DNA of 64,000 nucleotides from assembly GCA_023717525.1 (NCBI GenBank), contig JAMQPK010000231.1:1-64000 (forward strand), in the 5' to 3' direction. This document shows, in pieces, positions 505 through 60,433 of the stretch. The notes beneath the pieces were generated by a model, which had not been told where the DNA came from, did not search any database, and was given only the letters and a program-made list of their open reading frames with translations. Source of the DNA: Vicinamibacterales bacterium (lineage in GTDB: Bacteria; Acidobacteriota; Vicinamibacteria; Vicinamibacterales; JAMQPK01). The first letter of the stretch is position 1. Every line of letters starts with the position of its first letter. Made by a program: the position numbers and the translations under genes.

Positions 505-569
505 AGGGGCAAAGGGTAAGGGGCGAAGGGCAATCGCCCTCACCCCTCACCCCTTACCCCTCGCCCCTC
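505..569. repeat. Locus A: degenerate heptamer inverted repeat (AGGGGYR units, then reverse-complement units)
   Basis: AGGGGCA AAGGGTA AGGGGCG AAGGGCA ATC GCCCTCA CCCCTCA CCCCTTA CCCCTCG CCCCTC; starts 2 nt after the TGA, ends at the stop of the convergent PII gene. Confidence 0.85.
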
Positions 570-902
570 TTAGAGAGCGTCCTTCTCTCCCGTCCGAATG
601 TTGTATCCCTCCTGGACCGGCAGTACGAACACGCGGCCGTCGCCAATTTCACCCGTGCGCGCAGCGGTGATGATCGCCTGAATCGCGGTCTCCATCAGAT
701 GGTCCGGTACGACAGTCTCGATCTGCATCTTCGGCAGCAGCGTCACTTCGTACTCGCGTCCTCGATACACGGCCGTGTGCCCCTTCTGGCGACCGTGGCC
801 TCGCACCTCGGTCACGGTCATCCCGGCAATTTGTACCTTGGACAGCGCTTCCTTCACCTCGTCGACTTTGTTGGGCCGGATTATCGCCTTGATGAGCTTC
901 AT
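570..902 (-). CDS. glnK: P-II family nitrogen regulatory protein
   Basis: MKLIKAIIRPNKVDEVKEAL...GRQKGHTAVYRGREYEV T-loop, ...RTGEIGDGRVFVLPV; adjacent to amtB. Confidence 0.95.
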   Translation of the reverse strand: MKLIKAIIRPNKVDEVKEALSKVQIAGMTVTEVRGHGRQKGHTAVYRGREYEVTLLPKMQIETVVPDHLMETAIQAIITAARTGEIGDGRVFVLPVQEGYNIRTGEKDAL

Positions 903-2176
903 GCCATCTCCGAGCGCAGTGCGGTGGCGGATGACTTCAGGTGCATGCCTGGTCCGCCCATCGCCGTTGATTCGCCATGCACGTACGCCTCTTCGCCGTG
1001 ATTGCTCAGATCGATCCCCGCATCCTCATCGTCGGCAGCGCCGCGCAGCGGAACGATCGCGCCGACCAGCTTCAAGAGCACGAAACTCATGATGCCGCTG
1101 TAAACAATCGTTGCCGCGACAGCCGTTGCCTGGATGCCGAGCTGCGCGGGATTGCCGAACAGCAGCCCGTCGGCGGTGCCATTGAGCGCCTTCTGTGCGA
1201 ACACGCCCGTCAACAGCGCGCCTACCGTGCCGCCGACGCCGTGTGCGGCAACCACGTCGAGCGAATCGTCAAGTGAAGTTTTCGTGCGGAACAGGATGCC
1301 GAAATAGCTGGGCACGGCCGCGATGGCGCCGAGCGCGAGAGCGCTCATCGGGCCGACGAAACCGGCCGCCGGCGTGATGGCCACCAGGCCTACGACGATG
1401 GCGGTTGCACAGCCGACGGCTGTGGGTTTGCCCGACCGCATGTAGTCGAGCAGCGTCCAGACGACGAGCGTGCCCATGGGAGCAAGAAACGTCGTTGTGA
1501 ATGCCAGCGCGGCCGATGGACTCGCGGCCAGCGCGCTACCAGCATTGAAGCCGAACCAGCCGAACCAGAGCAGGCCGGCACCGAGAAGCGTGAACGGCAC
1601 GTTGTGCGGCAGCAACGAGGAACTTGGATAGTCCTTCCGTTTGCCGATGACGATTGCCGCGACCAGCGCAGCGATGCCGGCGTTCACGTGCACGACCGTG
1701 CCGCCCGCGAAATCGAGCGCACCCATCTTCGAGAGCCACCCGCCGCCCCAGACCCAATGAGCAATGGGCGCATACACGACCACGGACCAGAGGGTGATGA
1801 AGATCACGTATGCCGAGAACCGCATCCGCTCGACGATGGCTCCGGATATGAGCGCTGCCGTGATGATGCAGAACGTGCCCTGATACGCCATGAACAGGTA
1901 GTGCGGGATGGTGCCCTGCGCCTCGAGGCCGACGCCCTTCAAGCCAAGCCTCGAGAGGTCGCCGATGTAGTTCCCACCCGCAGAGAACGAGAGGGAATAG
2001 CCGACGATGGCCCACGCCACGCCGACGAAACCCAGCGAGATGAAGCTCATCATCATCGTGTTCAGAGCATTCTTCGAACGGACCAGGCCGCCGTAGAAGA
2101 ACGCGAGAGCTGGCGTCATCAGTAACACGAGCGCCGTCGAAACCAGCATCCATGCCGTATCGGCTTGATTCATCAC
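899..2176 (-). CDS. amtB: Ammonium transporter (Amt family)
   Basis: Multi-TM protein with FFYGGLVRSKNALNTMMMSF and GGTVVHVNAGIAALVAA motifs; overlaps PII gene. Confidence 0.96.
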   Translation of the reverse strand: MMNQADTAWMLVSTALVLLMTPALAFFYGGLVRSKNALNTMMMSFISLGFVGVAWAIVGYSLSFSAGGNYIGDLSRLGLKGVGLEAQGTIPHYLFMAYQGTFCIITAALISGAIVERMRFSAYVIFITLWSVVVYAPIAHWVWGGGWLSKMGALDFAGGTVVHVNAGIAALVAAIVIGKRKDYPSSSLLPHNVPFTLLGAGLLWFGWFGFNAGSALAASPSAALAFTTTFLAPMGTLVVWTLLDYMRSGKPTAVGCATAIVVGLVAITPAAGFVGPMSALALGAIAAVPSYFGILFRTKTSLDDSLDVVAAHGVGGTVGALLTGVFAQKALNGTADGLLFGNPAQLGIQATAVAATIVYSGIMSFVLLKLVGAIVPLRGAADDEDAGIDLSNHGEEAYVHGESTAMGGPGMHLKSSATALRSEMA

Positions 2177-2416
2177 TCACCTCATCAGTGGACGAAAATG
2201 TCGATGTTTGCAGTTCTTGGGCTTGACCGCCCCTGACCGCCGCATTTGCGCCTTTGGGAGGTGACACATTACCGTGGTTTTATTTGGAAAAACAGGAAAA
2301 AAGTTGTGATGGGGCCAGTGACTGCAGTGGGCGAACGTCTACCGACAAAGCGGTGAGGTCGAGGAGCGATTACGACAATGTTGTCAGCTCAACCTGTCAT
2401 AAATGGCGATCCACGC

Positions 2417-2791
2417 CTACTTGACCGGGGCGGGTCCCACGCTGCGAAGGTAGTTGATGATGTCCCAGGTTTCGCGCTCGGTCATCTTCGACGCGAAACC
2501 CTTCATTGCCGTCTTGGGAACGCCGCTGCGGATGACGGCGAAGATCTCGCTGTCGCTTGTGCCGTGCGTCCATTCGGCGTCCACGAGGTTCGACGGCTTC
2601 GGATTCAGTTGCTTCGAGGCGGGGCCGTCGCCAGTGCCAGACTTGCCGTGGCAACTGGCGCAGCTCCTGTTGTAGGCGCTCCCGCCGTCGGCAATCGACT
2701 TGGGCGTCGACGGCACGGCGTTCTGCTGGCCTGCGGCTGCAGGGAGCACCATGGCCAGGCTTACGGCGACGAGAGTTAATGAGTATTTCAT
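2417..2791 (-). CDS. Secreted c-type cytochrome (cytochrome c class I/CccA-like)
   Basis: Signal peptide MKYSLTLVAVSLAMVLPAAAG, CASCH haem motif, distal Met; start trimmed from the 203-aa ORF. Confidence 0.85.
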   Translation of the reverse strand: MKYSLTLVAVSLAMVLPAAAGQQNAVPSTPKSIADGGSAYNRSCASCHGKSGTGDGPASKQLNPKPSNLVDAEWTHGTSDSEIFAVIRSGVPKTAMKGFASKMTERETWDIINYLRSVGPAPVK

Positions 2792-2795
2792 GTGA

Positions 2796-3368
2796 TCACC
2801 TGAACGATCGCTGAAAGAGATCGTCGATAGCTTTCTTTGAGGGCTCGAGCAGCGTACGCGTTCCAGTACCGGTGAAGTGCTGGTGCTTGATGACGGGGCC
2901 GCCCGCGCTATCCGACGGCTGCCAGTCTTCGCCGTTCCACCAGAACCATCCCAGCTTGTCCTGATCGAACACGTGCAGCGGCTTGTTGCAAAGCTTCGCG
3001 AACTCCGCTCCCCACCCGGTACCGCCACGGACGGTCTTGTCTTCGAGGATCGTACCGACGACCCAGATTTCCTGGCCGTTGTTCACCTGATACCACAAGG
3101 TTTGCAGTACCTTCCGCAAGGTCGGGCTGTCGGTGTAGCGCCGGTGCATCAGCCGGCCAACGTATGTGAGGCTGACATCCCCGTTCTGCAGCTCCTCGTG
3201 ATTCAGCACGCGGACACCGCGGTGGCGGTCTATCTTGTGACCTTCGAACGTGAAATTGACTTCCTCGATGCCGTGGCGTTCGGCGCACGCGCCAAACGCT
3301 GCCTCGGCTCCAGGGGCCCCGCCGCTGAACAGGATGCTGTCGGATGCCTGCATCATGCGATCATACAC
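2796..3368 (-). CDS. SLOG/Rossmann-like hypothetical protein
   Basis: SGGAPGAEAAFGACAERHG and GGTGWGAEFAKLCNKPLHVFDQ resemble SLOG nucleotide-binding fold motifs. Confidence 0.5.
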   Translation of the reverse strand: MYDRMMQASDSILFSGGAPGAEAAFGACAERHGIEEVNFTFEGHKIDRHRGVRVLNHEELQNGDVSLTYVGRLMHRRYTDSPTLRKVLQTLWYQVNNGQEIWVVGTILEDKTVRGGTGWGAEFAKLCNKPLHVFDQDKLGWFWWNGEDWQPSDSAGGPVIKHQHFTGTGTRTLLEPSKKAIDDLFQRSFR

Positions 3369-3382
3369 CGCAGCGAAAACGC

Positions 3383-4636
3383 ATGAGCCGTGTCGTCATC
3401 GTCGGTGGGGGATTCGCCGGGCTCAACGCGGCGAAAGCGTTGGGTGGGCGAAAGGGCGTCGACGTCCTGTTGCTCGATCGCCAGAACCACCATTTGTTTT
3501 CCCCCCTTTTGTATCAGGTGGCGATGGCGGGGCTCAGTCCAGCCGACATCGCGGCCCCCATCCGGTCGATGCTGTCCGAGTACGGGAATATTCGCGTGCT
3601 CCTCGCGGAAGTGAGCGCAGTCGATCCGTCGCGCAGCGTGCTCCATGGCGACATAGGCGAGGTGCCGTACGACTACTTGCTGCTGTGTTGCGGTTCGACG
3701 CAGTCCTATTTTGGCCACGATGAATGGAAGGCCTATGCGCCCAGTTTGAAGACGCTGGAGGACGCCACCAATATCCGCGCGAAAGTGCTGCTCGCGTTTG
3801 AAGAAGCCGAGCGGATCGTCGATAAAGACGAGCGGAGGAAGTTCCTGACGTTCGTCATCGTGGGTGGCGGCCCGACCGGCGTGGAACTGGCTGGCGCCAT
3901 CGGCGAGATGAGCCGGTTTACGCTGGCGCGAGACTTCAAATCGATCGATGCGAAGTCGGCGCGAGTCTTGTTGATCGAAGCGGGCCCGCGCATTCTGCCG
4001 TCGTTCTCTGAAGAACAGGCGGCACAGGCCGTTCGGGACCTGGAGCATCTCGGGGTTCATGTATGGACGTCGAGCTCCGTCACTTCGATCGACGCGGACG
4101 GCGTCGCTATTGGCAAAGAGCGAGTCCACGCCGGAACGGTCGTGTGGGCCGCCGGGGTGAATGCGTCACCGTTGGGGAAGACGCTCGGCGCGGACGTCGA
4201 TCGCCAGGGCCGCGTCGTGGTTGAACCGGACTTGAGCGTCAAGGCGCATCCGAACGTCTTTGTGGCGGGCGATTTGGCGCTCTACACCCATCAGACAGGT
4301 GCGCCGTTGCCAGGCACGGCCCCGGTCGCGATGCAACAAGGCCGGCATGTCGGCCGAACGATTCTTCGCGACCTGCGGGGCGAGCCGCGCCAACCGTTTC
4401 ATTTCGTCGACAAAGGGCAAATGGCCACGATCGGGCGAAGCCGGGCCATCACACAGATTGGCGGGCTCAAGTTGAGCGGTTTTCCCGCGTGGCTGATGTG
4501 GCTGGCCGTCCACATCTACTATCTGGCAGGGTTCAAGAACCGGCTGCTTGTCGTGCTGCAATGGGCATGGTCGTACGTGACGTTCAGCCGCGGAGCGCGG
4601 TTGATTGTGGGGAAGGGGACTCGATCGAGTCGATAG
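3383..4636 (+). CDS. ndh: NAD(P)/FAD-dependent oxidoreductase, type II NADH dehydrogenase-like
   Basis: VVIVGGGFAGLNAAKALGG FAD-binding, FVIVGGGPTGVELAGAIGEM NAD-binding, VFVAGDLA motif. Confidence 0.9.
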   Translation: MSRVVIVGGGFAGLNAAKALGGRKGVDVLLLDRQNHHLFSPLLYQVAMAGLSPADIAAPIRSMLSEYGNIRVLLAEVSAVDPSRSVLHGDIGEVPYDYLLLCCGSTQSYFGHDEWKAYAPSLKTLEDATNIRAKVLLAFEEAERIVDKDERRKFLTFVIVGGGPTGVELAGAIGEMSRFTLARDFKSIDAKSARVLLIEAGPRILPSFSEEQAAQAVRDLEHLGVHVWTSSSVTSIDADGVAIGKERVHAGTVVWAAGVNASPLGKTLGADVDRQGRVVVEPDLSVKAHPNVFVAGDLALYTHQTGAPLPGTAPVAMQQGRHVGRTILRDLRGEPRQPFHFVDKGQMATIGRSRAITQIGGLKLSGFPAWLMWLAVHIYYLAGFKNRLLVVLQWAWSYVTFSRGARLIVGKGTRSSR

Positions 4637-4713
4637 TCGATAGGCAATAGACGATAGTCAGAGTCGATAGGCGACAGACCATAGTCCGCCAGTCGACGAT
4701 AGACGATGGACCG
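4625..4713. repeat. Locus B: degenerate heptamer tandem (GATAGNC-like)
   Basis: GATAGTC GATAGGC AATAGAC GATAGTC AGAGTC GATAGGC GACAGAC CATAGTC ... GACGATAGAC GATGGAC; overlaps the ndh stop codon. Confidence 0.75.
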
Positions 4714-27148: not shown

Positions 27149-27231
27149 GTTCTGGGGTTCTGAGTTCTCGGTGCTGGGTTCCAGTTCAGAACCCTGGAAC
27201 CTTAGAACGCTAGAACTTTAGAACCTCGTTG
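27149..27231. repeat. Locus C: octamer/heptamer inverted repeat (GGTTCTRR units)
   Basis: GGTTCTGGGGTTCTGAGTTCTCGGTGCTGGGTTCCAGTTC / AGAACCCTGGAACCTTAGAACGCTAGAACTTTAGAACC, in the divergent cysD-uvrA gap. Confidence 0.75.
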
Positions 27232-27293: not shown

Positions 27294-30176
27294 ATGCCTG
27301 ACACTCCGGTCCGCGCAGCCACTGCCATCGTCGTCCGGGGCGCGCGTACGCACAATCTGAAGAACATCGATCTCGTGCTGCCGCTTGGACAGCTGATCAT
27401 CGTAACGGGGGTCAGCGGTTCGGGTAAGTCGTCGCTCGCGTTCGATACGATCTACGCCGAAGGACAGCGCCGATACGTGAGCTCGCTTTCGGCCTACGCG
27501 CGCCAGTTCCTGGAGCGCATGGAGAAACCCGACGTCGATCGCATCGAGGGGATCTGCCCGGCGATCGCGATCCGCCAGAAGAACAGTATTCGCAATCCTC
27601 GATCGACGGTCGGAACCACCACCGAGATTCACGACTACATGAGGTTGCTGTTCGCCCGCGTCGGGCGTACGTACTGCCGGAATTGCGGACAGGAAGTCGT
27701 GCGCGAAACCGCCGAGATCGTGTCAAGGCACCTCGGTGCGCTGCCAGATGGCACGCGGTTGCTCATCGGCTTCGACATGCCGGTCGTCGATCCTGGCGGC
27801 GTGATCGACGGTTCGGACGCCGACGGGGCGGAGGAGGACTCGCCAGGGTCGGCCGACGGGGTGGCCGCGGCTGCCGCCACATTGGACAGTCTGCGTCGCA
27901 AGGGATTTCACCGGCTGTATCTCGGCGGGCGGACGGTGATGCTTGACGATCTCAACCCTGCAGAGCTGCGCGACCAGCCAAGCCTGAAGGTGATCGTCGA
28001 TCGCGTGAAGCTCGAAGGCGACATGCGCGCCCGGGTCACGGATTCGATCGAGACGTCCTATCGCGAAGGTGGAGGCGCGGCGTTCGCGATCGAGGATCCC
28101 GGACCACGCACTCACGTATTCAGCGAGCGGTTCGAATGCCGGGATTGCAAGATCGCGTACGAGACGCCCCAACCGAGGCTCTTCTCGTTCAACAACCCTT
28201 TCGGCGCCTGCCCGACGTGTCATGGGTTCGGCAACATCATCGAGCTCGACCTGGATCTGGTCGTACCGGACAAGACGAAGACGATCCAACAGGGCGCCAT
28301 CGAGCCGTGGACCAAGACGCACTATCGCGCTCAGCTCGCCGGCTTGAAGCGCGCCGCGAAGGCGGCCGGTGTGTCGATGGACATCGCGTGGCAGGATCTG
28401 ACCGACGAAGAGAAGCAGTTCGTGGTCGACGGCGACGGCCGGGACTACGACGGTATCCGGGGGTTTTTCCGCTGGCTCGAGCGCAAGAAGTACAAAGTGC
28501 ACGTACGCGTTTTCCTGAGCCGGTATCGGGGATACCTGACCTGCCCGGAGTGCGGCGGCGCGCGGCTCCGGCGCGAAGCGAGAGATGTGAAGGTTGGTGG
28601 GCGAACGATTGATCAGGTGTCGTCTGACACCGTGCGTGAAGCGGAGCGTTTCTTCACGTCGCTCGAGCTTACGGAAAAGGAGCTCGCCATCGGCCATAAG
28701 GTCCTTCAGGAAATTCTGAAGCGGCTGAAATTTCTCAGCGACGTCGGCCTCGACTACCTGTCGCTCGACCGGCTGTCATCGACGTTGTCGGGGGGCGAGT
28801 CGCAGCGCATCAATCTGGCAACATCGCTCGGGTCTTCTTTGGTCGACACGCTCTATGTACTGGATGAGCCGTCGATTGGTCTGCATTCCCGCGACAACCT
28901 CCGGCTCATCAATATCCTCCGGCAGCTCAGGGATCAGGGGAACACGGTCCTGGTGGTGGAACACGACGCCGACATGATTCGCGTGGCCGACACCATCGTC
29001 GATCTGGGCCTGGGAGCTGGTGAGCAAGGCGGCCGGGTCGTGTTTGCGGGCCCCCTGTCTGGACTGATGCAGGAACAACGATCGCTGACGGCGAAGTACC
29101 TGCGCGAAGACCTGGCGATTCCGGTTCCCGCCACGCGCCGGCGTGGCAGCGGGCAGAAACTGCGGCTGCTCGGTGCCACCGAGCACAACTTGAAGAACGT
29201 GGACATCGAGATTCCGTTGAATACGCTGACATGCATTACCGGCGTCAGCGGGTCGGGCAAGTCGACGCTCGTGCACGATGTGTTGTACGCCGCGGTGAAA
29301 CGGGCGAAGGGCGGCGTGGAACGCCGCGTGGGCGCGCACCGGAAGCTCGAAGGCGCTGAACTCGTGAGCGACGTCGTGCTCGTCGATCAGACGCCGATCG
29401 GCCGCACACCGCGGTCGAACCCGGTGACGTACCTGAAGGCCTTCGATCCCATCCGCGAAATCTTTTCGGCGACCAAGGACGCCAGGTCGCGGGGACTCAC
29501 CGCCAGCCATTTCTCCTTCAACGTACCCGGCGGGCGCTGCGAGGCGTGCCAGGGTGAGGGCGAAGTGCGCGTTGAAATGCAGTTCCTGGCCGACGTCTTC
29601 GTCCCGTGCGATCAGTGCGACGGCAAGCGCTTCAAGCCTCAGATACTCGACGTGAAGTATCGAGGGAAGAACATCAATCAGGTGCTCGACCTGACCGTGC
29701 GTGAGGCGCTCGCATTCTTCAGCACGTCGCCGAAGGTACTGCGGCGTCTGCACGTGCTCGACGAGATCGGGCTTGGCTACTTGCGGCTCGGTCAGCCGGC
29801 CACCACGCTTTCCGGAGGCGAAGCACAGCGGGTCAAGATCGCCTCGCATCTGTCGTCGCGCACGGGCGATCGCCTCCTGTACGTGCTGGACGAGCCGACG
29901 ACCGGCCTGCACTTCGACGACATCGCGAAGCTGCTGACGGCGTTCAAGAAGCTGATCGAGGCCGGCCACACGCTCGTTGTGATCGAGCACAACCTGGATG
30001 TCCTGAAGACGGCGGACTACATCATCGACCTGGGCCCTGAAGGCGGTCAGGAAGGCGGGCTCGTGGTGGCGACAGGCACGCCAGAGCAGATTGCCAAGGC
30101 GCCTGGTTCCCATACAGGCGCGTTCCTCGCCCCGGTGCTCGCGAGCGGCCGGACGCATGCGTACGCGGGGGAGTAG
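27294..30176 (+). CDS. uvrA: Excinuclease ABC subunit A
   Basis: [28 protein letters not shown]-type Walker A, Zn-finger Cys clusters, [18 protein letters not shown]. Confidence 0.98.
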   Translation: [960 protein letters not shown]

Positions 30177-30810
30177 ATCGTCCATCGTCGATCGGCCATC
30201 GTCGATCGTCGATCGTCTGCCGCGGTCGTTCTATGCGAGGCCGACGTTAGCGGTGGCGCGCGATCTGCTCGGAAAAGTACTCGTGCACGACACCCGAGAG
30301 GGTCTCGCCTCCGGTCTCATCGTTGAGGTCGAGGCCTACGTCGGCGAGTCCGATCCCGCCTGCCACGCCGCTCCCGGTCCGACGAAGCGCAATGCGCCTC
30401 TCTATGGCCCCCCCGGGTTTTCCTATGTGTACTTGAACTACGGTGTGCACTATCTGGTGAACGTCGTGACCGAACCGGAAGGTTCGCCCGCCGGTGTGCT
30501 GATTAGAGCGCTCGAGCCGCTCGAGGGCATCGCCTTGATGCGCCGGCGGCGGATGCGGCCAATTCCCGACCACGCGTTATGCCAGGGCCCCGGCAACCTC
30601 ACCCGCGCACTCGGGATTTCGCTGAAGAACAACAAGTTCGATCTACGGGGCGACACGCTCTACATTGCCGATCGCGGCCGCGGTATTGAAAGCGTGTCGT
30701 GGAGCCCGCGTATCGGCATCGCCGTTGGCACCGATCGCGGGTGGCGTTGCTTCGCCAGCGGCCACGTTTCCGTGTCTCGCGAACCACTCAGCCCATTACG
30801 AAAGATCTAG
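30157..30810 (+). CDS. mpg: DNA-3-methyladenine glycosylase (AAG/MPG family)
   Basis: RDLLGKVLVHDTREGLASGLIVEVEAYVGESDPACHA...GPPGFSYVYLNYGVHYLVNVVT; probable start overlaps uvrA 3' end. Confidence 0.9.
   Translation: MRTRGSRSSIVDRPSSIVDRLPRSFYARPTLAVARDLLGKVLVHDTREGLASGLIVEVEAYVGESDPACHAAPGPTKRNAPLYGPPGFSYVYLNYGVHYLVNVVTEPEGSPAGVLIRALEPLEGIALMRRRRMRPIPDHALCQGPGNLTRALGISLKNNKFDLRGDTLYIADRGRGIESVSWSPRIGIAVGTDRGWRCFASGHVSVSREPLSPLRKI
30177..30218. repeat. Locus D: six contiguous heptamers (ATCGTCS)
   Basis: ATCGTCC ATCGTCG ATCGGCC ATCGTCG ATCGTCG ATCGTCT, starting at the base after the uvrA TAG. Confidence 0.9.
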
Positions 30811-35229: not shown

Positions 35230-35832
35230 ATGGATGTTCCGTACCGATCCCCCGCCCACGGATGGATCGAGGTCATTACTGGAAGCATGTTCAGCGGAAA
35301 GAGCGAGGAGCTCATCCGCCGCCTGCGCCGTGCGCAGATCGCGCGCCAGCGAGTGCAGATTTTCAAGCCATCGTTCGACGACCGGTTTTCGGACGCGGAA
35401 ATCGTCTCGCACAGCGAGATGCGCATCCAGGGTGTCAAGGTCGGAGACTCTGCCGAGCTCCTCCGCCTTGTCCGCGAAGACACCGAAGTCGTCGGCATCG
35501 ACGAGGCGCAGTTCTTCGACAAGGATCTGCCGGCTGCGTGCACGAAGCTCGCCGAAAGCAGCAAACGCGTCGTCGTCGCGGGCCTTGATACCGACTATCT
35601 TGGCCAGCCGTTCGAGCCGATGCCCGTGATGATGGCTATCGCCGAATACGTGACGAAGACCCACGCCATCTGCATGGTGTGCGGCAATCCCGCGAGCCAC
35701 ACGCAGCGCCTCGTGGCAAGCGACGAGCGCCTGCTGCTGGGCGCCACTGGAACGTATGAGGCCCGCTGCCGCCGGTGTTTCGATCCCACACTCGCCACGG
35801 CACCGGCTAAGGAAGTGAACGGCAAACGGTGA
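35230..35832 (+). CDS. tdk: Thymidine kinase
   Basis: [43 protein letters not shown]-terminal Zn Cys pairs. Confidence 0.96.
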
Positions 35833-35849
35833 ACGGTAAACGGTAGACG
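35815..35849. repeat. Locus E: five contiguous heptamers (GTGAACG)
   Basis: GTGAACG GCAAACG GTGAACG GTAAACG GTAGACG; overlaps the tdk stop codon. Confidence 0.85.
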
Positions 35850-36451: not shown

Positions 36452-36501
36452 AGGGAAGAGGGAAGAGGGGAGAGGGAAGAAAGCACGGTATACGGTGAAC
36501 G
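36452..36501. repeat. Locus F: heptamers AGGGAAG x4 followed by GTATACG GTGAACG
   Basis: AGGGAAG AGGGAAG AGGGGAG AGGGAAG AAAGCACG GTATACG GTGAACG. Confidence 0.8.
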
Positions 36502-37412: not shown

Positions 37413-37532
37413 GCTATTGGAGATTGGGTGATAGGTGATTGGGTGATAGGAAAGGCAATGCCAATCGCCAATCGCCAATCGCCAATCACCCAATCACCTA
37501 TCGCCAAATCACCTATCACCCAATCTCCAATG
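37413..37532. repeat. Locus G: heptamer inverted repeat (GATTGGG/TGATAGG arm, CCAATCR/CCTATCA arm), ends in the panE start codon
   Basis: CTATTGGAGATTGGGTGATAGGTGATTGGGTGATAGG ... CCAATCG x3 CCAATCA CCCAATCA CCTATCG CCAAATCA CCTATCA CCCAATCTCCAATG. Confidence 0.9.
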
Positions 37533-39332: not shown

Positions 39333-41141
39333 ATGCCCGTCCAGAATCTCAAGGCCCAGATCGCCAACCTGCCCGAGCAGCCAGGTGTCTATCTGTTTGC
39401 CAATGACGCGGGCGAGACGATCTACATCGGCAAGGCGCGGTCCTTGCGCGACCGGGTTCGAAGCTATCTGGGCGCGCGGGGTACGCATCCGAAGACCGAC
39501 GCGCTGCTCGATGAGGCCGCCGGGCTCGACGTCATCATCACCGATTCCGTCGTGGAGGCGCTCGCGCTCGAAAACCATCTCGTGAAGGAACGTGCGCCAC
39601 GCTACAACGTGCGGCTGCGCGACGACAAGAACTATCCCTACCTCCAACTGACCACGAACGAGCCGTTTCCGCGGGTGCTCGTCGCCCGCCGGGTCGAGCG
39701 CGACGGCACGTTCTACGCCGGGCCGTTCATGCCCGCGTCCCTCGCGCGCCGCACGATGGGCTTGACGCACCGCCTGTTCGGCATCCGATCGTGCAATGAG
39801 GTCATTACCGGCATCCGCGATCGACCGTGCCTCGAGTACGACATCAAGCGGTGCATCGCGCCGTGCGTGGCAACGGTCTGCTCCAAGGAACGATATGACG
39901 AAGCCGTCGAGCGGACACAGCTGTTTTTCGAGGGCAAGAACGAGGAGTTGATCGAGCGGTTGACCGAATCGATGAGGGCCGCCGCCGAGGCCGAGCGGTT
40001 CGAGGAGGCGGCGCACCTGCGCGATGCCTCCCGGACCGTGCAGACGCTGCGCGACCGTCAGCAGAAGATCGCGACCGCGAGGCTGGGGGATCGGGATGCG
40101 TTCGGGCTGCACATCGGCCCGGCTGGTGCGGTGATCCACGTGTTCGTGATGCGCGAAGGAAAAGTCCTGGAGCGCATCGCGCTTGCGGCCAACGAGGGTC
40201 TCTCCGGTTCGGCTGCGGAGATTCTGCAGGCGTCTGTCGAGCAGTTCTACGAGAGCCGGCCTGCTCCGGCCGAAGTCCATCTTTCGAGCCCGGCCGAGGA
40301 CGCCGATTTGCTCGAGGCGTGGCTGTCAGAGCGGGCTGACCGCACCGTTCAGGTGGTGGTCCCCAAGCGAGGCGAGAAGCGGGGCCTGGTCGATCTCGCC
40401 GTTCGAAATGCGCGGGTGGCCTATCAGGCGCGGCTCATCGACACGGGCCTGTCGAATTACGACGCCCTGGAGACGCTGCGCACCACGCTGCAGCTGACGG
40501 CGATACCGCGGCGCATCGAGTGTTTCGACATCTCGACGATCCAGGGGAGCGAGACGGTGGCGTCAATGGTCGTCTGCGAAGACGGAAAAATGCGGAAAGG
40601 CGACTATCGGAAGTACCGGATCTCGGCCGCGAATCATGCTGGATCTGACGACTTCGCCGCGATGCGCGAGGTGGTGCACCGGCGATACCGGAAGTTGCTC
40701 GAACAGGGCGGGCCGTTTCCGGACCTCGTCCTCATCGACGGCGGAAAGGGGCAGCTGACGGCCGCCTACGACGCCCTGCGCGAACTCGGGCTCGCCAATC
40801 TCGTGGCGGTCGGCATCGCCAAGAAGGAAGAGCTGATCTACCTGCGCGATCGCGACGATCCTGTCGCTTTTGGGGCTGACGATCCGGCGCTTCAGCTTGT
40901 GCAGAGGATTCGTGACGAAGCGCACCGTTTTGCCGTGACGTTTCACCGCACGGCGCGGAAGATGCGCGACCTCCGGTCCGAGCTCGACAGCGTTCCGGGG
41001 ATCGGCCCGCGTCGCCGCCGCGCGCTGCTCATCGCGTTTGGCAGCCTCGCCGGCGTGCGCCGGGCGTCGCGCGAAGATCTGATGGCGGTGGTTGGCGCGA
41101 AAACGGCCGACGCGGTGTTGGGGTACTTCACCGGTAAGTGA
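39333..41141 (+). CDS. uvrC: Excinuclease ABC subunit C
   Basis: GIY-YIG (PGVYLFANDAGETIYIGKARSLRDRVRSY), UVR motif, C-terminal HhH SVPGIGPRRRRALLIAFGS. Confidence 0.97.
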   Translation: MPVQNLKAQIANLPEQPGVYLFANDAGETIYIGKARSLRDRVRSYLGARGTHPKTDALLDEAAGLDVIITDSVVEALALENHLVKERAPRYNVRLRDDKNYPYLQLTTNEPFPRVLVARRVERDGTFYAGPFMPASLARRTMGLTHRLFGIRSCNEVITGIRDRPCLEYDIKRCIAPCVATVCSKERYDEAVERTQLFFEGKNEELIERLTESMRAAAEAERFEEAAHLRDASRTVQTLRDRQQKIATARLGDRDAFGLHIGPAGAVIHVFVMREGKVLERIALAANEGLSGSAAEILQASVEQFYESRPAPAEVHLSSPAEDADLLEAWLSERADRTVQVVVPKRGEKRGLVDLAVRNARVAYQARLIDTGLSNYDALETLRTTLQLTAIPRRIECFDISTIQGSETVASMVVCEDGKMRKGDYRKYRISAANHAGSDDFAAMREVVHRRYRKLLEQGGPFPDLVLIDGGKGQLTAAYDALRELGLANLVAVGIAKKEELIYLRDRDDPVAFGADDPALQLVQRIRDEAHRFAVTFHRTARKMRDLRSELDSVPGIGPRRRRALLIAFGSLAGVRRASREDLMAVVGAKTADAVLGYFTGK

Positions 41142-41230
41142 CGTGGGAGAACGTAGGAGAACGTGGGAGAGCGTGGGTGAAGTTCTCCCACGTTTTCCTC
41201 CGCACCCTACGTTCTCCCACGTTCTCCCAC
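41141..41230. repeat. Locus I: decamer inverted repeat (ACGTGGGAGA units)
   Basis: ACGTGGGAGA ACGTAGGAGA ACGTGGGAGA GCGTGGGTGA AG TTCTCCCACG TTTTCCTCCGCACCCTACG TTCTCCCACG TTCTCCCAC; begins at the uvrC stop. Confidence 0.9.
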
Positions 41231-42858: not shown

Positions 42859-43676
42859 GCGAACTGCCCCCCTCTCCAGACTTCGAGTCGTCGCCGGACG
42901 CGTATTCCGTGAAGCTGGACAGCTTCGAGGGCCCTCTCGATCTGCTGATTCACCTCATTAAGAGGAACGAGGTGAATATCTACGACATTCCCATCGCGCT
43001 CATTACCAAGCAGTATCTCGAGTACGTCGAGATGATGAAGGATCTGAATCTCGACATCGTCGGTGAGTTCCTGGTCATGGCGGCGACGTTGATCCACATC
43101 AAGTCGAAGATGCTCTTGCCCAGGCCCGACCCGGCCCAAGACGACATGCTGGAGGAGGACCCGCGCGAGGCGCTCGTCCGCCGGTTGCTCGAGCACCAGA
43201 AGTTCAAGGCGGCGGCCGAGCTGCTGCACGAACGGGCCGTGCTGCGGGGCGCACAGTGGATTCGGCCGGACGGCCGTGTCGCGGAAATCGCCGGCAAGGA
43301 CTACGCCTACGAGCCCGAGATCGAGGTCGATCTCTTCAGCCTGCTTGCGGCGTTCCGCGGGGTGCTCGAGCGCGCCAAGCAGCGGCCAAAAATGCTGCTG
43401 CCTCCCGAGGAGGTGCCGGTCGAAAGGCGGATTGAGCAGCTGCTGGCAATGTTGTCAGAGACCGACGCATGCGGGTTCGAGGATTTGTTCCAGAACGACG
43501 TTTCGCGCACGGGCATGATCGTGACATTTCTGGCCCTCTTGGAGATGATTCGTCTTAAGCTGATCCGCGTGTTCCAGACGGCGGCATTCGGTCCCATCCG
43601 GGTCTACAAGAGGACGCGCCCGGCCGACGCGCCTCAGCCGATTGGCGACCCCGCCGCCTCCAAGACCAACGACTAA
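42855..43676 (+). CDS. scpA: Segregation and condensation protein A
   Basis: YSVKLDSFEGPLDLLIHLIKRNEVNIYDIPIALITKQYLEY; FLALLEMIRLKLIRVFQ. Confidence 0.95.
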   Translation: MSELPPSPDFESSPDAYSVKLDSFEGPLDLLIHLIKRNEVNIYDIPIALITKQYLEYVEMMKDLNLDIVGEFLVMAATLIHIKSKMLLPRPDPAQDDMLEEDPREALVRRLLEHQKFKAAAELLHERAVLRGAQWIRPDGRVAEIAGKDYAYEPEIEVDLFSLLAAFRGVLERAKQRPKMLLPPEEVPVERRIEQLLAMLSETDACGFEDLFQNDVSRTGMIVTFLALLEMIRLKLIRVFQTAAFGPIRVYKRTRPADAPQPIGDPAASKTND

Positions 43677-43700
43677 CGACCAACGACCAACGACTACAAG
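43665..43700. repeat. Locus L: heptamers ACCAACG spanning the scpA stop to the scpB start
   Basis: ACCAACG ACTAACG ACCAACG ACCAACG ACTACAAG then ATG of scpB. Confidence 0.85.
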
Positions 43701-44357
43701 ATGTCTGACGACGATCTGAAACCCATCATCGAAGCGCTGATCTTCGCGTCGCCCGATCCGCTGACGCCCAAGATGCTGTTCAAGCTGCTCGAGACCGAGC
43801 CGAAGGAGGACGTCGAGTCGGCGCTCGAGTCGCTGAAGCGCGACTACGATCGCGTCGGCGGACTGCAGCTTGTCGAAGTCGCCGGTGGGTACCAGATTGT
43901 CACGCGGCCCGAGCTTCACGAGTGGGTCCGGCGGCTGTTCCACGAGCGCACGTCCCAGCGCCTGTCTGTGCAGGCACTCGAGACACTGGCGGTGATTGCC
44001 TACAAGCAGCCGATTACCGGCCCGGAAATTACCGAGATTCGCGGCGTGAACACCGCTGGCGTGCTGAGCACGCTCATCGAGCGGCAACTGATCAAGATCG
44101 TGGGCCGCAAACCCGTCGTGGGGCGCCCCTTCATGTAGTCCACGACGCGTGAGTTCCTGATCCGGTTCGGGCTTCGCGACCTGACCGATCTGCCGAAGAT
44201 CGAAGAGATGGCCGAAGCGCTTGGGTTTGAAGTGCCGGCAGGCCTGGCTCAACCGTCATCGCCTTTGCAGCCGCTGCTGGATCTCGAGGGCGGTGTGCCC
44301 CCCGGAGACGACGAACCGATGTCACCCGATGTCCCGCCGGGGGAGAAAATTCACTAG
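43701..44357 (+). pseudogene. scpB: Segregation and condensation protein B, interrupted by an in-frame TAG at 44136-44138
   Basis: ORF ends ...KIVGRKPVVGRPFM* and continues in frame STTREFLIRFGLRDLTDLPKIEEMAEALGFE to a TAG at 44355. Confidence 0.85.
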
Positions 44358-44445
44358 CTATTGGAGATTGGGTGATAGGTGATTGGGCGATAGGAACAAT
44401 CACCCAATCCCTATCACTCAATCACCTATCACCCACTCTCCAATG
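44358..44445. repeat. Locus H: heptamer inverted repeat, near-identical to locus G, ends in the rluB start codon
   Basis: CTATTGGAGATTGGGTGATAGGTGATTGGGCGATAGGAA ... CAATCACCTATCACCCACTCTCCAATG; starts directly after the scpB TAG. Confidence 0.9.
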
Positions 44446-45933: not shown

Positions 45934-46605
45934 ATGCGCGGCCTCATCATTGCCATCGACGGTCCGTCCGGTGCCGGAAAGGGAACGGTCGCGCGCGCGG
46001 TGGCGCAGCGATTGGGCTACCGCCATCTGGACACCGGCGCAATGTATCGTGCGGTCGCGTGGAAAGCCCTGCAGGATGGTCTGGACCTGGCTGACGAAGC
46101 CGCCGTTGCGGTGGTGGCTGAACGCGCTGCGCTCGAGATTGGGCCAGGCCGCGTACAGATTGACGGTACGGATGTGACCGCCGCGATTCGGACGCCGCAA
46201 ATCGATCGCGCGGCGGCGGCCGCCGCGCGGCTTCCACGCGTGCGCGCCGCACTCGTGAAACGCCAGCGGCAGGCGGGCGAGCAGGGAAGCATCGTCATGG
46301 AAGGGCGCGATATCGGCACCGTGGTGTTTCCCGATGCGGATGTGAAGATCTACCTCGATGCGTCGTCGGAAGAGCGCGCGCGCCGGCGCGCCGCGGATCC
46401 GTCGCACGGTGTCGGCCGTCACGCCGCGCTTGCCGACGTGGAGAGCGAGCTGAAGGCCAGAGACTACTCGGACTCCACTCGTGCAACATCACCGCTTGCC
46501 GAGGCGAAAGACGCCGTGCACCTCGACACGACCGGGCTGTCGATCGAGCAGACGGTGGGGGCGGTGATGGAGATAGTGGGGGAGAAACTTGAAGGTGGAA
46601 AGTAG
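45934..46605 (+). CDS. cmk: Cytidylate kinase
   Basis: IAIDGPSGAGKGTVARAVAQRLGYRHLDTGAMYRAVAW; VMEGRDIGTVVFPDADVKIYLDAS. Confidence 0.96.
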   Translation: MRGLIIAIDGPSGAGKGTVARAVAQRLGYRHLDTGAMYRAVAWKALQDGLDLADEAAVAVVAERAALEIGPGRVQIDGTDVTAAIRTPQIDRAAAAAARLPRVRAALVKRQRQAGEQGSIVMEGRDIGTVVFPDADVKIYLDASSEERARRRAADPSHGVGRHAALADVESELKARDYSDSTRATSPLAEAKDAVHLDTTGLSIEQTVGAVMEIVGEKLEGGK

Positions 46606-46651
46606 AAACCTTCCACTTACTTTCCACCTTCGACCTTCCACTTTCCACCTA
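46588..46651. repeat. Locus M: heptamer inverted repeat (GTGGAAR)
   Basis: GAAGGTGGAAAGTAGAAACCTTCCACTTACTTTCCACCTTCGACCTTCCACTTTCCACCTAC; overlaps the cmk stop. Confidence 0.85.
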
Positions 46652-49208: not shown

Positions 49209-49544
49209 ATGGACGAACCTGAAGTTCCGGCGGCTCTCGGCGGGAGCATGACGAAAGCCGAACTCGTGGAGGAGGTGTCCCGGGTGTCGGACCTCACCAA
49301 GAAGCACTCCGAGGTGATCGTCGATACGGTGTTCCGGAGCATCATCACCGCGCTCCATCGCGGCGAGAAGATCGAGCTTCGCGGTTTCGGCAGCTTCAGG
49401 CTCCGCAGGCGCGAGCCCCGCAAGGGCCGCAATCCGAAGACGGGCGACAAGGTGGACGTGCCGCCAAAGAAGGTGCCGTACTTCAAGCCCGGCAAAGAGC
49501 TGAAGGAACTCATCAATCAGGACCCCGGTACTACTTCGCAGTAG
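49209..49544 (+). CDS. HU/IHF family DNA-binding protein
   Basis: MTKAELVEEVSRVSDLTKKHSEVIVDTVFRSIITALHRGEKIELRGFGSFRLRRREPRKGRNPKTG. Confidence 0.95.
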   Translation: MDEPEVPAALGGSMTKAELVEEVSRVSDLTKKHSEVIVDTVFRSIITALHRGEKIELRGFGSFRLRRREPRKGRNPKTGDKVDVPPKKVPYFKPGKELKELINQDPGTTSQ

Positions 49545-49645
49545 GTGGAAGGTGGAAGGTGGAAAGTCGAAGGTAAGTGCTCGCAACTTCCTACCCACCT
49601 TCCTACCCACCTTCCACCTTCCACCTTCAACTTTCCACCTTCACA
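49545..49645. repeat. Locus N: heptamer inverted repeat (GTGGAAG)
   Basis: GTGGAAG GTGGAAG GTGGAAA GTCGAAG ... CCACCTTCCACCTTCCACCTTCAACTTTCCACCTTCAC; starts one base after the HU TAG. Confidence 0.9.
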
Positions 49646-49655: not shown

Positions 49656-50153
49656 ATGGACCGCCTCTGGGCTCCCTGGCGCCTGGCCTACGTGACCGCT
49701 GCTCCCGCTCCTTCCACTGATTGCATTTTCTGCGACGCGCTCACGAGCGCAGACGCGGAGCTGACGGTGTTCCGGGCGCGTCATGCCTTCGTCATCCTGA
49801 ATCTCTACCCTTACAACAACGGTCACCTCATGGTGGTGCCCAACCGCCATCTGAATACACTTGCCCTGCTGACGCCGGACGAGCAGCAGGAGTTGATGTC
49901 GCTGACGCGCTTATCAGAAATGGCGCTCTCCGAAGCCTATCGGCCCCAGGGGTTGAACGTGGGCATCAACCTCGGCAGGGCCGCGGGAGCCGGCATCGAG
50001 AATCATCTCCATATCCATGTCGTACCGCGATGGCAGGGCGACACCAACTTCATGACGGCGGTGGGAGAGACGCGCGTGCTGCCTGAAGATCTGCGCCAGA
50101 CGGCCTCGAACCTCCGGCCGGTTTTCGAGCGCCTCGCCCGGTCGGGTGCGTAG
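49656..50153 (+). CDS. HIT-family protein
   Basis: LNLYPYNNGHLMVVPNRH; GAGIENHLHIHVVPRW HxHxH motif; start trimmed. Confidence 0.93.
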   Translation: MDRLWAPWRLAYVTAAPAPSTDCIFCDALTSADAELTVFRARHAFVILNLYPYNNGHLMVVPNRHLNTLALLTPDEQQELMSLTRLSEMALSEAYRPQGLNVGINLGRAAGAGIENHLHIHVVPRWQGDTNFMTAVGETRVLPEDLRQTASNLRPVFERLARSGA

Positions 50154-50177
50154 GCGCGTGGGTGCGTCGGTGCGCAG
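50146..50177. repeat. Locus Q: four octamers (GTGCGTNG)
   Basis: GTGCGTAG GCGCGTGG GTGCGTCG GTGCGCAG over the HIT stop codon. Confidence 0.55.
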
Positions 50178-56242: not shown

Positions 56243-56287
56243 GTGTACCTCTAAGTAAAAGTTTGAAATCTATAATCTAAAAAGTAA

Positions 56288-56322
56288 GACGATGGACGAT
56301 GGACGATCGACGATCGACGGTC
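56288..56322. repeat. Locus O: five contiguous heptamers (GACGATS), reverse complement of the locus D motif
   Basis: GACGATG GACGATG GACGATC GACGATC GACGGTC. Confidence 0.85.
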
Positions 56323-56405
56323 CGTGATGTACAATGTCGCTACCGCCTCTGCATCACCACCGAGGCGCGTGAAAGGCCGCCAAGCCATTGCCCCAGGAGG
56401 CGCTG

Positions 56406-56460
56406 CACCATGTGCAACAGCCGGAAGGGCCAGCGGATTCGGCAGCGGCCGGGAGGTGCT
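56406..56460 (+). promoter_or_regulatory. Candidate structured 5' leader that would sequester the Shine-Dalgarno of the mutase gene
   Basis: GCACC ... GCCGG ... CCGG ... GGTGC nested complementarity, with SD GGGAGGTG in the 3' strand. Confidence 0.3.
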
Positions 56461-56466
56461 CAATAT

Positions 56467-58132: not shown

Positions 58133-58140
58133 CGCTGGAT

Positions 58141-58226
58141 CTTGAAGATTGAAGATTGGAGCATTGAAACATCAAGAAATTGTCCCATGTTTCAATCTAC
58201 AATCCTTCAATCTTCAATCTTCAATG
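58141..58226. repeat. Locus P: heptamer inverted repeat (ATTGAAG / CTTCAAT), ends in the start codon of the B12-binding subunit
   Basis: CTTGAAG ATTGAAG ATTGGAG CATTGAAACAT ... ATGTTTCAAT CTACAAT CCTTCAAT CTTCAAT CTTCAATG. Confidence 0.9.
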
Positions 58227-58646: not shown

Positions 58647-58670
58647 ATAGATCGCTTTGACCTTCGGCTC

Positions 58671-59804
58671 ATGACGCACAAGCTCCTTCTCGCGGACGAC
58701 AGTGTCACGATTCAGCGCGTTATCGAGCTCACGTTTGCCGACGAAGACGTCGAAGTGACGGCCGTAGGCGATGGGCAGCTCGCGATCGAGCGCCTGAATA
58801 CCGATCGGTTCGACATCGTGCTGGCGGACGTGGACATGCCCAAGCACGACGGATATGAAGTGGCAGCGTATGTGAAAAGCCGGCCCAAGCTTGCCCACAT
58901 TCCCGTGGTCCTGCTGACCGGCGCATTCGAGCCCATCGACCAGGCCCGCGCCCGCGCGGCGGGGTCGAGCGATGTGCTAGCAAAGCCTTTCGAGCCTCAA
59001 ATGGTGATCAATCGAGTGAAGCAATTGCTCGGCAAGAAGACGGAAGACGGGCGCTACGATGCGCTTCCGGTGACGAACGAGGCTCCGGCGATGCTGCCGA
59101 AGCCGCCGGCTCCGGCCGCATCGCTCCACCCAGAGGTGGAGCTGGGTGGTTCGGCCGCTCCCGTATCGCTGGACGATTATTTCGATCAGCTGGATGCCGC
59201 ATTCTCGAATCTCCAGACGTCGTCTTCGGCGTCGGACTCCAGCGCGACGAAGGACATCGACTGGCCTGTCATGGAACCAGCCGCTCCGGAACCGCCGCCG
59301 CCGCCGAAGGAGCTGCTGCTAACGATGCCAGCCGCGCCGGTTGTGCAGGTCGCTGCACCGCCGGTCGCGCGACCTGTCGCTGCTGCGCCGCCACCGCCGC
59401 CACCTCCACCTCCGGCGCCCGAGCCCGTTGCTCCGCCGGTGCAAGTGGATCTCGACCCCTGGGACGCCGTGACGGAAACTGTCGTGGCAAGCGCCCGGCC
59501 TGCGCCGCCACCGGCACCCGCACCCGCTCCACATCCGCCGGCGCCGCCACCGGTGATTGCAAAGCCCGCGGCGACTCCGGCCACGAATCCGTTCGCATCG
59601 CTTTCAGCGGCGAAGGCTGAGGTCGCGGCTGCGCGCGCCTCTGCGCCTGTCATCACCGAAGAAATCATTGAAGAGGTGGTTGCCCGCGTTCTTCAACGGA
59701 TGAGCGATCGCGTCGTCCGCGAGACCGTCACGGAGATCGTGTCGCAGACGGCAGAGCGCCTGGTGCAGGAGGAAATTGAACGCATTCGGGCGAGTGGGGA
59801 GTAG
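58671..59804 (+). CDS. Response regulator receiver-domain protein with long Pro/Ala-rich linker
   Basis: LLADDSVTIQRVIELTFADEDVEVTAVGDGQLAIERLNTDRFDIVLADVDMPKHDGYEVA...VVLLTGAF...AKPF; PPPPPPPAPEPVAPP. Confidence 0.88.
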   Translation: MTHKLLLADDSVTIQRVIELTFADEDVEVTAVGDGQLAIERLNTDRFDIVLADVDMPKHDGYEVAAYVKSRPKLAHIPVVLLTGAFEPIDQARARAAGSSDVLAKPFEPQMVINRVKQLLGKKTEDGRYDALPVTNEAPAMLPKPPAPAASLHPEVELGGSAAPVSLDDYFDQLDAAFSNLQTSSSASDSSATKDIDWPVMEPAAPEPPPPPKELLLTMPAAPVVQVAAPPVARPVAAAPPPPPPPPPAPEPVAPPVQVDLDPWDAVTETVVASARPAPPPAPAPAPHPPAPPPVIAKPAATPATNPFASLSAAKAEVAAARASAPVITEEIIEEVVARVLQRMSDRVVRETVTEIVSQTAERLVQEEIERIRASGE

Positions 59805-59806
59805 TG

Positions 59807-59905
59807 CGTAGGAGAACGTGGGAGAACGTGGGAGAACGCGGGATAGCGTGGGTGAGGGTTACCCACGTTTTCCTACGCGCCCAGCGCTCTCTCACGTTGT
59901 CCCAC
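59807..59905. repeat. Locus J: decamer inverted repeat (GTGGGAGAAC), homologous to locus I
   Basis: GTAGGAGAAC GTGGGAGAAC GTGGGAGAAC GCGGGATAGC GTGGGTGAGG / GTTACCCACGTTTTCCTACGCGCCCAGCGCTCTCTCACGTTGTCCCAC. Confidence 0.9.
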
Positions 59906-60268
59906 CTAGCGTCCGCGGGTTAGACGAATCAGTCCGCTTAGAGGTGAGGCGACCTGCCTTACCTCTAGTTCAAACTTCCCGTAAGCGTCGTCGCCTAAGT
60001 AGCCAAGTCTCCTGGCCGCGTGCAAGCAATACCCGACCTCTGCAAGGGAAGACCACGACGTACTCAGAAACTGCAAACGCTCGCCGCGGTACTCCCTCGC
60101 AAATCCTTCAACGATGTTCGCCGGTACCGAGTACGCCGCGCGCCTGATTTGGCTGCCCAGTTCGAATCGCTCGTAGTTCGGGAACGACTGGCGCACCAGT
60201 TGGTGAACGTGAATATACAAGTCGTCGGCACGCTGCCACGCCACAAGGTTGTGATGCCTTAGCGGCAT
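59906..60268 (-). CDS. Four-helix-bundle protein, S23 / 23S rRNA-intervening-sequence-protein family (Avd-like fold)
   Basis: HHNLVAWQRADDLYIHVHQLVRQSFPNYERFELGSQIRRAAYSVPANIVEGFAREYRGERLQFLSTSWSSLAEVGYCLHAARRLGYL. Confidence 0.9.
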   Translation of the reverse strand: MPLRHHNLVAWQRADDLYIHVHQLVRQSFPNYERFELGSQIRRAAYSVPANIVEGFAREYRGERLQFLSTSWSSLAEVGYCLHAARRLGYLGDDAYGKFELEVRQVASPLSGLIRLTRGR

Positions 60269-60308
60269 CCTTCGGCTTGTGCACATTGCGTGCCGGTACC
60301 CGCCCGAC

Positions 60309-60406
60309 GCCACCCACGTTCTCCCACGTGCCCCACGCTCTCCCACGCAACCACGCTCTCCCACGCCACCCACGTTGTCCCACGTCGCCCACGTTTTCCC
60401 ACGTAT
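60309..60406. repeat. Locus K: decamer repeats in one orientation (CCCACGTTCT), distal flank of the four-helix-bundle gene
   Basis: CCACCCACGTTCTCCCACGTGCCCCACGCTCTCCCACGCAACCACGCTCTCCCACGCCACCCACGTTGTCCCACGTCGCCCACGTTTTCCCACG. Confidence 0.85.
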
Positions 60407-60433
60407 CCCCCATTGAAGTACCATTGTCCGCCC

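What the first reader, a model, noticed from the sequence alone, without database searches (positions are those of the whole stretch)
505..60410. Window-wide family of intergenic short-tandem (mostly heptamer) repeats, many folded as inverted arms and anchored at stop codons
At least 17 loci (A-F, G, H, I-Q in the feature list) are runs of degenerate 7-mers (a few 8- or 10-mers). Each locus has its own motif: AGGGGYR, GATAGNC, GTGAACG, AGGGAAG, ACCAACG, GATTGGG, GTGGAAG, GACGATS, ATTGAAG, GTGGGAGAAC, GGTTCTRR. At A, C, G, H, I, J, M, N and P the forward units are followed by reverse-complement units, predicting a long RNA hairpin. The units start within a few nt of, or overlap, the upstream stop codon at A, B, D, E, G, H, I, J, L, M, N, P and Q. 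They end at or in the next start codon at G, H, L and P. This is not ordinary low complexity, because every locus keeps the same period with a different sequence. Known parallels are the STRR heptamers of heterocystous cyanobacteria and the degenerate heptamers pairing in the P6b stem of the Nostoc tRNA-Leu intron. I know of no equivalent described for this lineage.
Basis: partly seen in the sequence, partly recalled or inferred. Interest (0 to 1): 0.87.

Follow-up and report, generated by a model that had tools for sequence, protein, structure and literature searches.

The report
Spreading seven-letter repeats after genes
Short DNA repeats of about seven letters fill roughly a quarter of the gaps between genes in this soil bacterium, usually starting right after a gene ends; related bacteria have the same kind of repeat spelled with different letters in the same gaps, so they look like rapidly replaced, self-spreading filler rather than fixed switches.

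Summary
In 1.39 Mb of this Acidobacteriota (Vicinamibacterales-type) genome, 164 of 672 intergenic gaps carry degenerate tandem arrays. Period 7 dominates, and shuffled controls have almost none. Arrays favour convergent gaps (53%) over codirectional (24%) and divergent ones (9%), and start within 10 nt of a sense stop codon more often than random placement gives. About 43% of array-bearing gaps have inverted arms.

One first-reader claim fails. Loci do not each have their own motif: about 20 "words" recur at many loci, with shared non-periodic flanks and inverted ends. They are dispersed elements.

Relatives show how they behave. Orthologous gaps are empty or filled with different words. A 29-nt array sits exactly between stop and start of efp-tdk in one genome and is absent in a neighbour 87% identical. 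The same uvrC loop carries in-frame hairpins spelled in different words. Occupancy is not conserved by gap, arms do not coevolve, and U-tracts, G-quadruplexes and RAYT do not explain them.

Best explanation: near-neutral copy-paste repeats, tolerated mostly in slack after stop codons. This is the Xanthomonas/Nostoc heptamer-repeat kind, here multi-word with fast word turnover. The spreading machinery is unknown. New variant of a known kind.

The parts
505..569 (.). Word AGGGGYR, inverted arms, between convergent genes (stops at 502 and 570)
   Evidence: TRF; fold z -5.7; word 17x in genome, reversed-pattern control 0
4628..4686 (.). Word CGATAGGCAATAGTC / GATAGNC, overlaps the stop (TAG, 4634-4636) of the upstream gene; convergent gap
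27149..27226 (.). Word GGTTCTRR (8-mer), inverted arms, in a divergent gap (exception to the stop rule)
   Evidence: fold z -4.0
30176..30217 (.). Word GATCGTC, single arm directly after the uvrA stop TAG
   Evidence: no hairpin (z -0.9)
35815..35849 (.). Word ACGGTRA, spans the thymidine-kinase stop (TGA) and ends 5 nt before the next start
   Evidence: z +0.4
36452..36480 (.). Word AGGGAAG, single arm preceding the Ku gene
   Evidence: z -2.1
37417..37531 (.). Word GATTGGGTGATAGGT, full palindromic element (ATTGGAG...CTCCAAT) between Ku and ApbA genes, ending at the next start
   Evidence: z -10.0
41141..41230 (.). Word GTGGGAGAAC (10-mer), inverted arms directly after the uvrC stop
   Evidence: z -9.5
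43660..43694 (.). Word ACCAACG, single arm that encodes the last residues and the TAA stop of ScpA and separates scpA from scpB
   Evidence: scpA/scpB overlap in many relatives
44357..44442 (.). Word GATTGGGTGATAGGT, full palindromic element after the distal scpB-frame stop, ending at the next start
   Evidence: z -11.2
46590..46650 (.). Word GGTGGAA, arms in a convergent gap, outer end CTTCGCTGTAG
   Evidence: z -5.6
49543..49642 (.). Word GGTGGAA, inverted arms starting in the stop TAG of an HU-family gene, outer end CTTCGCAGTAG
   Evidence: z -6.8
50144..50174 (.). Weak 8-mer array GGGTGCGT at a gene junction
   Evidence: score 41
56288..56319 (.). Word GACGATS, single arm 45 nt after a stop
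   Evidence: z -0.3
58142..58225 (.). Word ATTGAAG, inverted arms between methylmalonyl-CoA mutase and B12-binding genes
   Evidence: z -6.5
59807..59900 (.). Word GTGGGAGAAC, inverted arms after a stop
   Evidence: z -5.3
60313..60404 (.). Word GTTCTCCCAC (same word, opposite strand), single long arm before the next gene
   Evidence: z -0.2

Best explanation
The arrays are copies of lineage-specific dispersed elements built from degenerate words of about 7 nt. A word that already exists in the genome is copied, in one step and several units long, into slack DNA. It often comes as an inward-reading palindrome (word...loop...reverse word) and sometimes as a single arm. Such copies survive mainly between a stop codon and the next start, sometimes supplying the stop codon, and rarely in a permissive protein loop. 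Unit number then stays roughly stable, letters drift, and families with new words replace old ones. Shown: dispersal of shared words with shared non-periodic flanks, filled/empty alleles, word turnover at the same gap, and gap occupancy that is not conserved. Inferred: direction of change (gain rather than loss), copying from other arrays, and near-neutrality. Unknown: the enzyme; template switching by a replication or repair polymerase with a register of about 7 nt is my guess.
For: Limited vocabulary: 90 arrays, 16 word clusters. GATTGGG copies share ATTGGAGATTGGGTGATAGG arms at many loci, and non-periodic flanks such as CTGTC|AGGG (5 vs 0.4 expected) and CTGGAC|ATTGAAG (3 vs 0.1) recur. Filled/empty sites: the efp-tdk junction is empty in L109, L110, L118, L119, L142, L147 and L150, and filled with different words in L121, L122, L126, L128, L129, L133 and L145. 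L109 vs L126 differ by a clean 29-nt array between TGA and CATGG. In L121 vs L128 two orthologous gaps are filled with different words, and their uvrC loops carry different inserts. The uvrC loop carries in-frame heptamer hairpins in several relatives. scpA-scpB overlap in many relatives but are separated by an array here. Filled states do not cluster by orthologous gap (p=0.28). Permissive-site pattern: convergent > codirectional > divergent. The same word GTCCTTG is amplified in only one other, distant genome of 118.
Against: Single-arm arrays next to stops keep a preferred orientation (49/63, null 42.7, p=0.012), which plain strand-neutral insertion does not predict. No donor-recipient copying event was observed, no target-site duplication was defined, and no dedicated enzyme was found (no Y1 transposase; Ku presence does not track arrays). 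The direction of the L126/L109 difference is parsimony, not proof. No genome of the same family was available.
Confidence: 0.55

Rival explanations
1. The arrays act as 3'-end RNA hairpins: transcript terminators or stabilisers for which any word will do, so the hairpin but not the letters is selected.
For: Stop-proximal, 53% of convergent gaps, strong folds at many loci, word orientation relative to transcription, few canonical terminators detected in this genome.
Against: About 57% of array-bearing gaps have no inverted arm (70 of 164 do). TTTT follows arrays at background rate (7/200 vs 26/1128). Arms within a locus are no more alike than between loci (n=11). Occupancy is not conserved by gap. 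Arrays also sit inside tightly packed gene pairs such as scpA-scpB and efp-tdk and inside uvrC.
Confidence: 0.22
2. Local replication slippage: each array grew in place from a short seed at the end of a gene, in 7-nt steps favoured by the polymerase footprint.
For: Heptamer excess in many bacteria has been attributed to polymerase footprint and slippage (Mrazek 2007 as summarised in PMC4679880 and PMC4692102). Arrays often share phase with the stop codon. L128 word GCCTGRG matches the local GCCTGA stop context.
Against: Words and non-periodic flanks are shared by many loci; slippage cannot make inverted arms; arrays at shared loci in L109/L126 (87% identity) keep nearly the same unit number.
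Confidence: 0.12
3. Binding arrays for a heptamer-reading RNA- or DNA-binding regulator.
For: Regular period, sense orientation, position near stops and starts; proposed for TAACTGA repeats (PMC4679880).
Against: About 20 different words in one genome, different words in the same orthologous gap; few arrays end at start codons.
Confidence: 0.06
4. G-quadruplex or i-motif elements as in Xanthomonas and Nostoc.
For: A few words have G-runs (AGGGGTA, GATTGGG, GGGCTTT).
Against: Only 17 of 203 arrays hold a G4 motif on either strand.
Confidence: 0.03
5. Assembly artefact.
For: The genome is a 242-contig draft.
Against: A relative held as one 7.48 Mb contig has 29 copies of its own word; independent assemblies from many projects show the same class.
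Confidence: 0.01

Closest known systems
GGGNATC heptamer repeats of Xanthomonas and GGGGAYT of Nostoc (Rehm et al. 2015, PMC4692102)
   Same: Heterogeneous heptamer arrays at ~180 loci per Xanthomonas genome, mostly intergenic, depleted between divergent genes, close to or overlapping stop codons on the sense strand, frequently (70-75 cases) as inverted pairs.
   Different: There one G-rich word per genome, discussed as G-quadruplex; here ~20 words per genome, mostly unable to form G4, with word turnover between related genomes.
Short tandemly repeated repetitive (STRR) heptamers of cyanobacteria
   Same: Degenerate heptamers, intergenic, a few families per genome (own knowledge; PMC4692102 mentions three Calothrix heptanucleotides).
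   Different: Palindromic multi-word organisation and in-frame insertion into uvrC not described to my knowledge; lineage differs.
TAACTGA direct repeats of Beggiatoaceae, Cyanobacteria and Bacteroidetes (PMC4679880)
   Same: Period 7, intergenic, patchy phylogeny, sometimes overlapping stop codons.
   Different: One exact word, mostly just upstream of start codons, one indirect repeat only.
Tandem hepta- and octanucleotide elements of Geobacter metallireducens (PMC2700814)
   Same: Multicopy elements of three to five hepta- or octamer units, several paired on opposite strands.
   Different: Interpreted as regulator sites; ~16-49 copies of each of a few classes; lineage differs.
REP / BIME / REPIN palindromes mobilised by RAYT
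   Same: Short dispersed extragenic palindromes near 3' ends of genes.
   Different: No Y1 transposase in this genome, internal structure is a tandem array, many sequence families.

Membership tests
Xanthomonas/Nostoc-type heptamer repeats | Degenerate tandem units of 7 nt at many intergenic loci | tested here: met
Xanthomonas/Nostoc-type heptamer repeats | Close to sense stop codons, depleted between divergent genes, partly as inverted pairs | tested here: met
Xanthomonas/Nostoc-type heptamer repeats | G-rich word able to form G-quadruplexes | tested here: not met
   17 of 203 arrays
Xanthomonas/Nostoc-type heptamer repeats | One predominant word per genome | tested here: not met
   16-21 word clusters
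Cyanobacterial STRR | Named STRR sequences of heterocystous cyanobacteria | not tested
   STRR consensus sequences were not retrieved; lineage is Acidobacteriota
REP/RAYT elements | RAYT (Y1_Tnp) transposase in the genome | tested here: not met
   PF01797: 0 matches, controls positive
REP/RAYT elements | Dispersed palindromic units | tested here: met
   70 of 164 array gaps with inverted arms vs 1/78 shuffled; GATTGGG family
Intrinsic terminators | G+C-rich hairpin followed by a U-tract | tested here: not met
   TTTT within 12 nt after arrays 7/200, background 26/1128
TAACTGA repeats | Exact TAACTGA unit just upstream of start codons | tested here: not met
   Words and positions differ
Rfam RNA families | Match to a described RNA family | tested here: not met
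   Only a tRNA in the window
MITE-like transposable element | Target-site duplication at precise ends | tested here: inconclusive
   One clean filled/empty pair shows no clear duplication; too few

The most novel reading that the evidence does not exclude
Heptamer repeats in distant bacteria (Acidobacteriota, Xanthomonas, cyanobacteria) come from one general copying process that works in a register of about 7 nt, does not care about the sequence it copies, and both spreads and inverts whichever word happens to be present. Each lineage therefore carries its own vocabulary at the same kind of site.
Probability: 0.25. Interest if true: 0.8.

Novelty: new variant of a known kind. Interest (0 to 1): 0.6.

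Why it matters
It moves the long-noted excess of heptamer repeats in bacteria from 'odd sequences with possible functions' to a measurable turnover process. The site class is stable, the word is not, so gene-specific regulation and G-quadruplexes are unlikely to be the general reason. Orthologous filled/empty sites across Vicinamibacterales genomes make the birth mechanism directly testable. The arrays also rewrite gene ends (ScpA C-terminus) and protein loops (UvrC), which matters for annotation and for understanding how bacterial intergenic DNA is made.

Tried and rejected
(2) REP/RAYT mobilisation: no Y1_Tnp; one RVT_1 gene in two frames, not linked to arrays.
(3) Ku/NHEJ templated insertion, suggested by Ku in the window: Ku is absent from array-bearing G001, G004, G044, G048, G087 and G147 and present in array-poor G006, G057, G101, G110 and G125 (array density from samples of at most 20-40 kb, noisy), so rejected.
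(4) U-tract terminators and G-quadruplexes: not supported.
(5) Arm coevolution: one search seemed to show it, but its arms were picked by within-locus alignment; the unbiased test shows none.
(6) Site conservation: no clustering of filled states by orthologous gap.
(7) Stop-codon supply: TAG is over-used where arrays touch the stop (56% vs 39%, p=0.02), modest only.
(8) Literature: no paper found on these repeats in Acidobacteriota; subscription papers are not held.
Full report
Where the window comes from. The window is a stretch of contig C144 of a 3.78 Mb, 242-contig draft genome. Protein hits (acidobacterial VWA domain, acidobacterial-type UvrC) and 42 related uvrC loci, among them Vicinamibacterales and Luteitalea records, place it in Acidobacteriota, most likely Vicinamibacterales. 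No other genome of its family was held. I sampled 841 kb and then 1.39 Mb of it by stretches. Some contigs were chosen because they held a repeat word; contigs not so chosen give almost the same figures (22% vs 27% of gaps with an array). Gene calls are from my own codon-usage caller, so gap statistics carry that uncertainty.

Is it there, and beyond chance? Yes. In the first sample, 111 arrays lie in 362 gaps, against 0.2 in dinucleotide-preserving shuffles and about 2 in the same length of coding DNA; period 7 gives 57, with 14, 15, 8, 20, 9 and 10 behind. In the larger sample 203 arrays occupy 164 of 672 gaps, about 146 per Mb, and the array cores cover 7.5% of gap DNA. A 50 kb stretch of E. 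coli K-12 gave none.

Vocabulary, not one motif per locus. Ninety period-7 arrays collapse into 16 word clusters: GTCCTTG/GTCGTTG, GATCGTC, ATTGAAG, AAGTAAG, GGGCTTT, ACGGTRA, AACTGAG, GGTGGAA, AGGGGTR and so on. GATTGGGNGATAGG occurs 42 times in this genome and never in 39 same-order genomes. Copies share more than the unit: GATTGGG elements share arms beginning ATTGGAGATTGGGTGATAGG and ending in its reverse complement. Non-periodic flanks such as CTGTC before AGGG and CTGGAC before ATTGAAG recur above expectation. So these are dispersed elements, many of them palindromic, others single arms.

Position and orientation. Convergent gaps 53%, codirectional about 24%, divergent 9% (first sample, convergent vs divergent p=1.5e-9). 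Arrays start within 10 nt of a sense stop in 58 of 82 cases, against 36 for random placement. Each word prefers one orientation when next to a stop (68/82 vs 54 expected; single-arm arrays alone 49/63, p=0.012). For palindromic elements this follows from their inward-reading symmetry; for single arms it is unexplained. Arrays touching the stop use TAG more often (56% vs 39%, p=0.02), and in several cases the stop lies in phase within the array, for example ScpA.

Structure. Seventy of 164 array gaps have inverted arms, against 1/78 shuffled. In the window, ten of the 16 stretches folded have z from -4.0 to -11.2, one is weak and five do not fold better than shuffles. But the two arms of a GATTGGG locus agree at 25.4 of 31 positions, and arms from different loci at 25.3 (n=11), so there is no sign that pairing is kept by compensatory change. 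There is no U-tract excess, and only 17 of 203 arrays have a G-quadruplex motif. Rfam finds only a tRNA in the window.

Relatives. Across 42 named loci, period 7 again dominates (64 arrays against 1 in local shuffles), with other words. At the efp-tdk junction of 14 genomes, seven are empty (for example TGACCATGG, TGATGG) and seven carry arrays of different words. L109 and L126, 87% identical there, differ by a clean 29-nt insert (about TTTCAGAGTTCAGATTTCAGAGTTCAGATT) between TGA and CATGG. Their shared arrays keep nearly the same length. L121 and L128, 81.5% identical, fill two orthologous gaps with different words and carry different inserts in the uvrC loop. In uvrC, a variable loop holds in-frame heptamer hairpins with different words in L109, L115, L117, L125, L126 and others, and unrelated palindromic inserts in L114 and L128; this genome has none. 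scpA and scpB overlap in many relatives (GTGGCTGA); here an ACCAACG array encodes the end of ScpA, its stop, and the spacer. Over 21 orthologous gaps and 287 instances, 48 are filled, almost always with different words, and filled states are not concentrated in particular gaps (p=0.28).

Spread across the phylum. Arrays with their own words occur in several other families and are not seen in others (samples of at most 20-40 kb, so absences are weak). GTCCTTGGTCCTTNGTCC occurs 28 times here, 28 times in one distant genome (G147), and in none of the other 117 searched: the same word was amplified twice. A genome held as a single 7.48 Mb contig has 29 copies of an 8-mer word, its congeners 15 and 3, which excludes assembly artefact and shows copy-number turnover within a genus.

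Mechanism. The facts fit one-step, multi-unit copying of words already present into slack DNA, with survival decided by what the site tolerates. That explains stop-proximal, convergent-rich and divergent-poor placement, in-frame copies in a protein loop, filled/empty alleles and word turnover. A polymerase template switch with fold-back would produce both direct and inverted copies, but nothing here shows it, and neither a RAYT nor Ku explains it. The main rival is a hairpin at transcript ends with free choice of word; the lack of arm coevolution, the many arrays without a partner arm and the lack of site conservation weigh against it but do not exclude it.

Known kinds. The anatomy matches the heptamer repeats of Xanthomonas and Nostoc (PMC4692102) except that G-quadruplex capacity and the single word are not met. 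It also resembles Geobacter heptamer elements (PMC2700814), and less closely the TAACTGA repeats (PMC4679880). I file it as a new variant of that kind.

Noticed in passing
window 44136-44138 within 43701-44357: scpB has an internal in-frame TAG; the conserved ScpB C-terminal part continues in the same frame to a second stop at 44355-44357, where the next heptamer element begins. Read error, pseudogene or real truncation not resolved.
   Followed up: partly
L109-L150, uvrC loop (own UvrC residues about 430-440): The same UvrC surface loop is a sink for many different palindromic repeats, including long non-heptamer ones (L114, L118, L128, L150).
   Followed up: partly
L109, L114, L116, L124, L129 and others, scpB N-terminus: scpB N-terminal extensions are built of in-frame 9-nt repeats coding Gly-Gln-(Glu/Asp) rich stretches; in L149 of an AACKCCC heptamer array.
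   Followed up: no
L197/L198 (G000 C48: 88-782): A reverse-transcriptase gene split over two frames, the only RVT_1 match in this genome.
   Followed up: no
G066 and G102: The reversed (not complemented) control pattern of GTCCTTGGTCCTTNGTCC rings 15 and 5 times in two phylum members, showing yet another amplified heptamer word there.
   Followed up: no
own-genome sample, all gaps: Canonical hairpin-plus-U-tract terminators are rare (19 of 672 gaps by a simple scan), so termination in this lineage may rely on other means.
   Followed up: no
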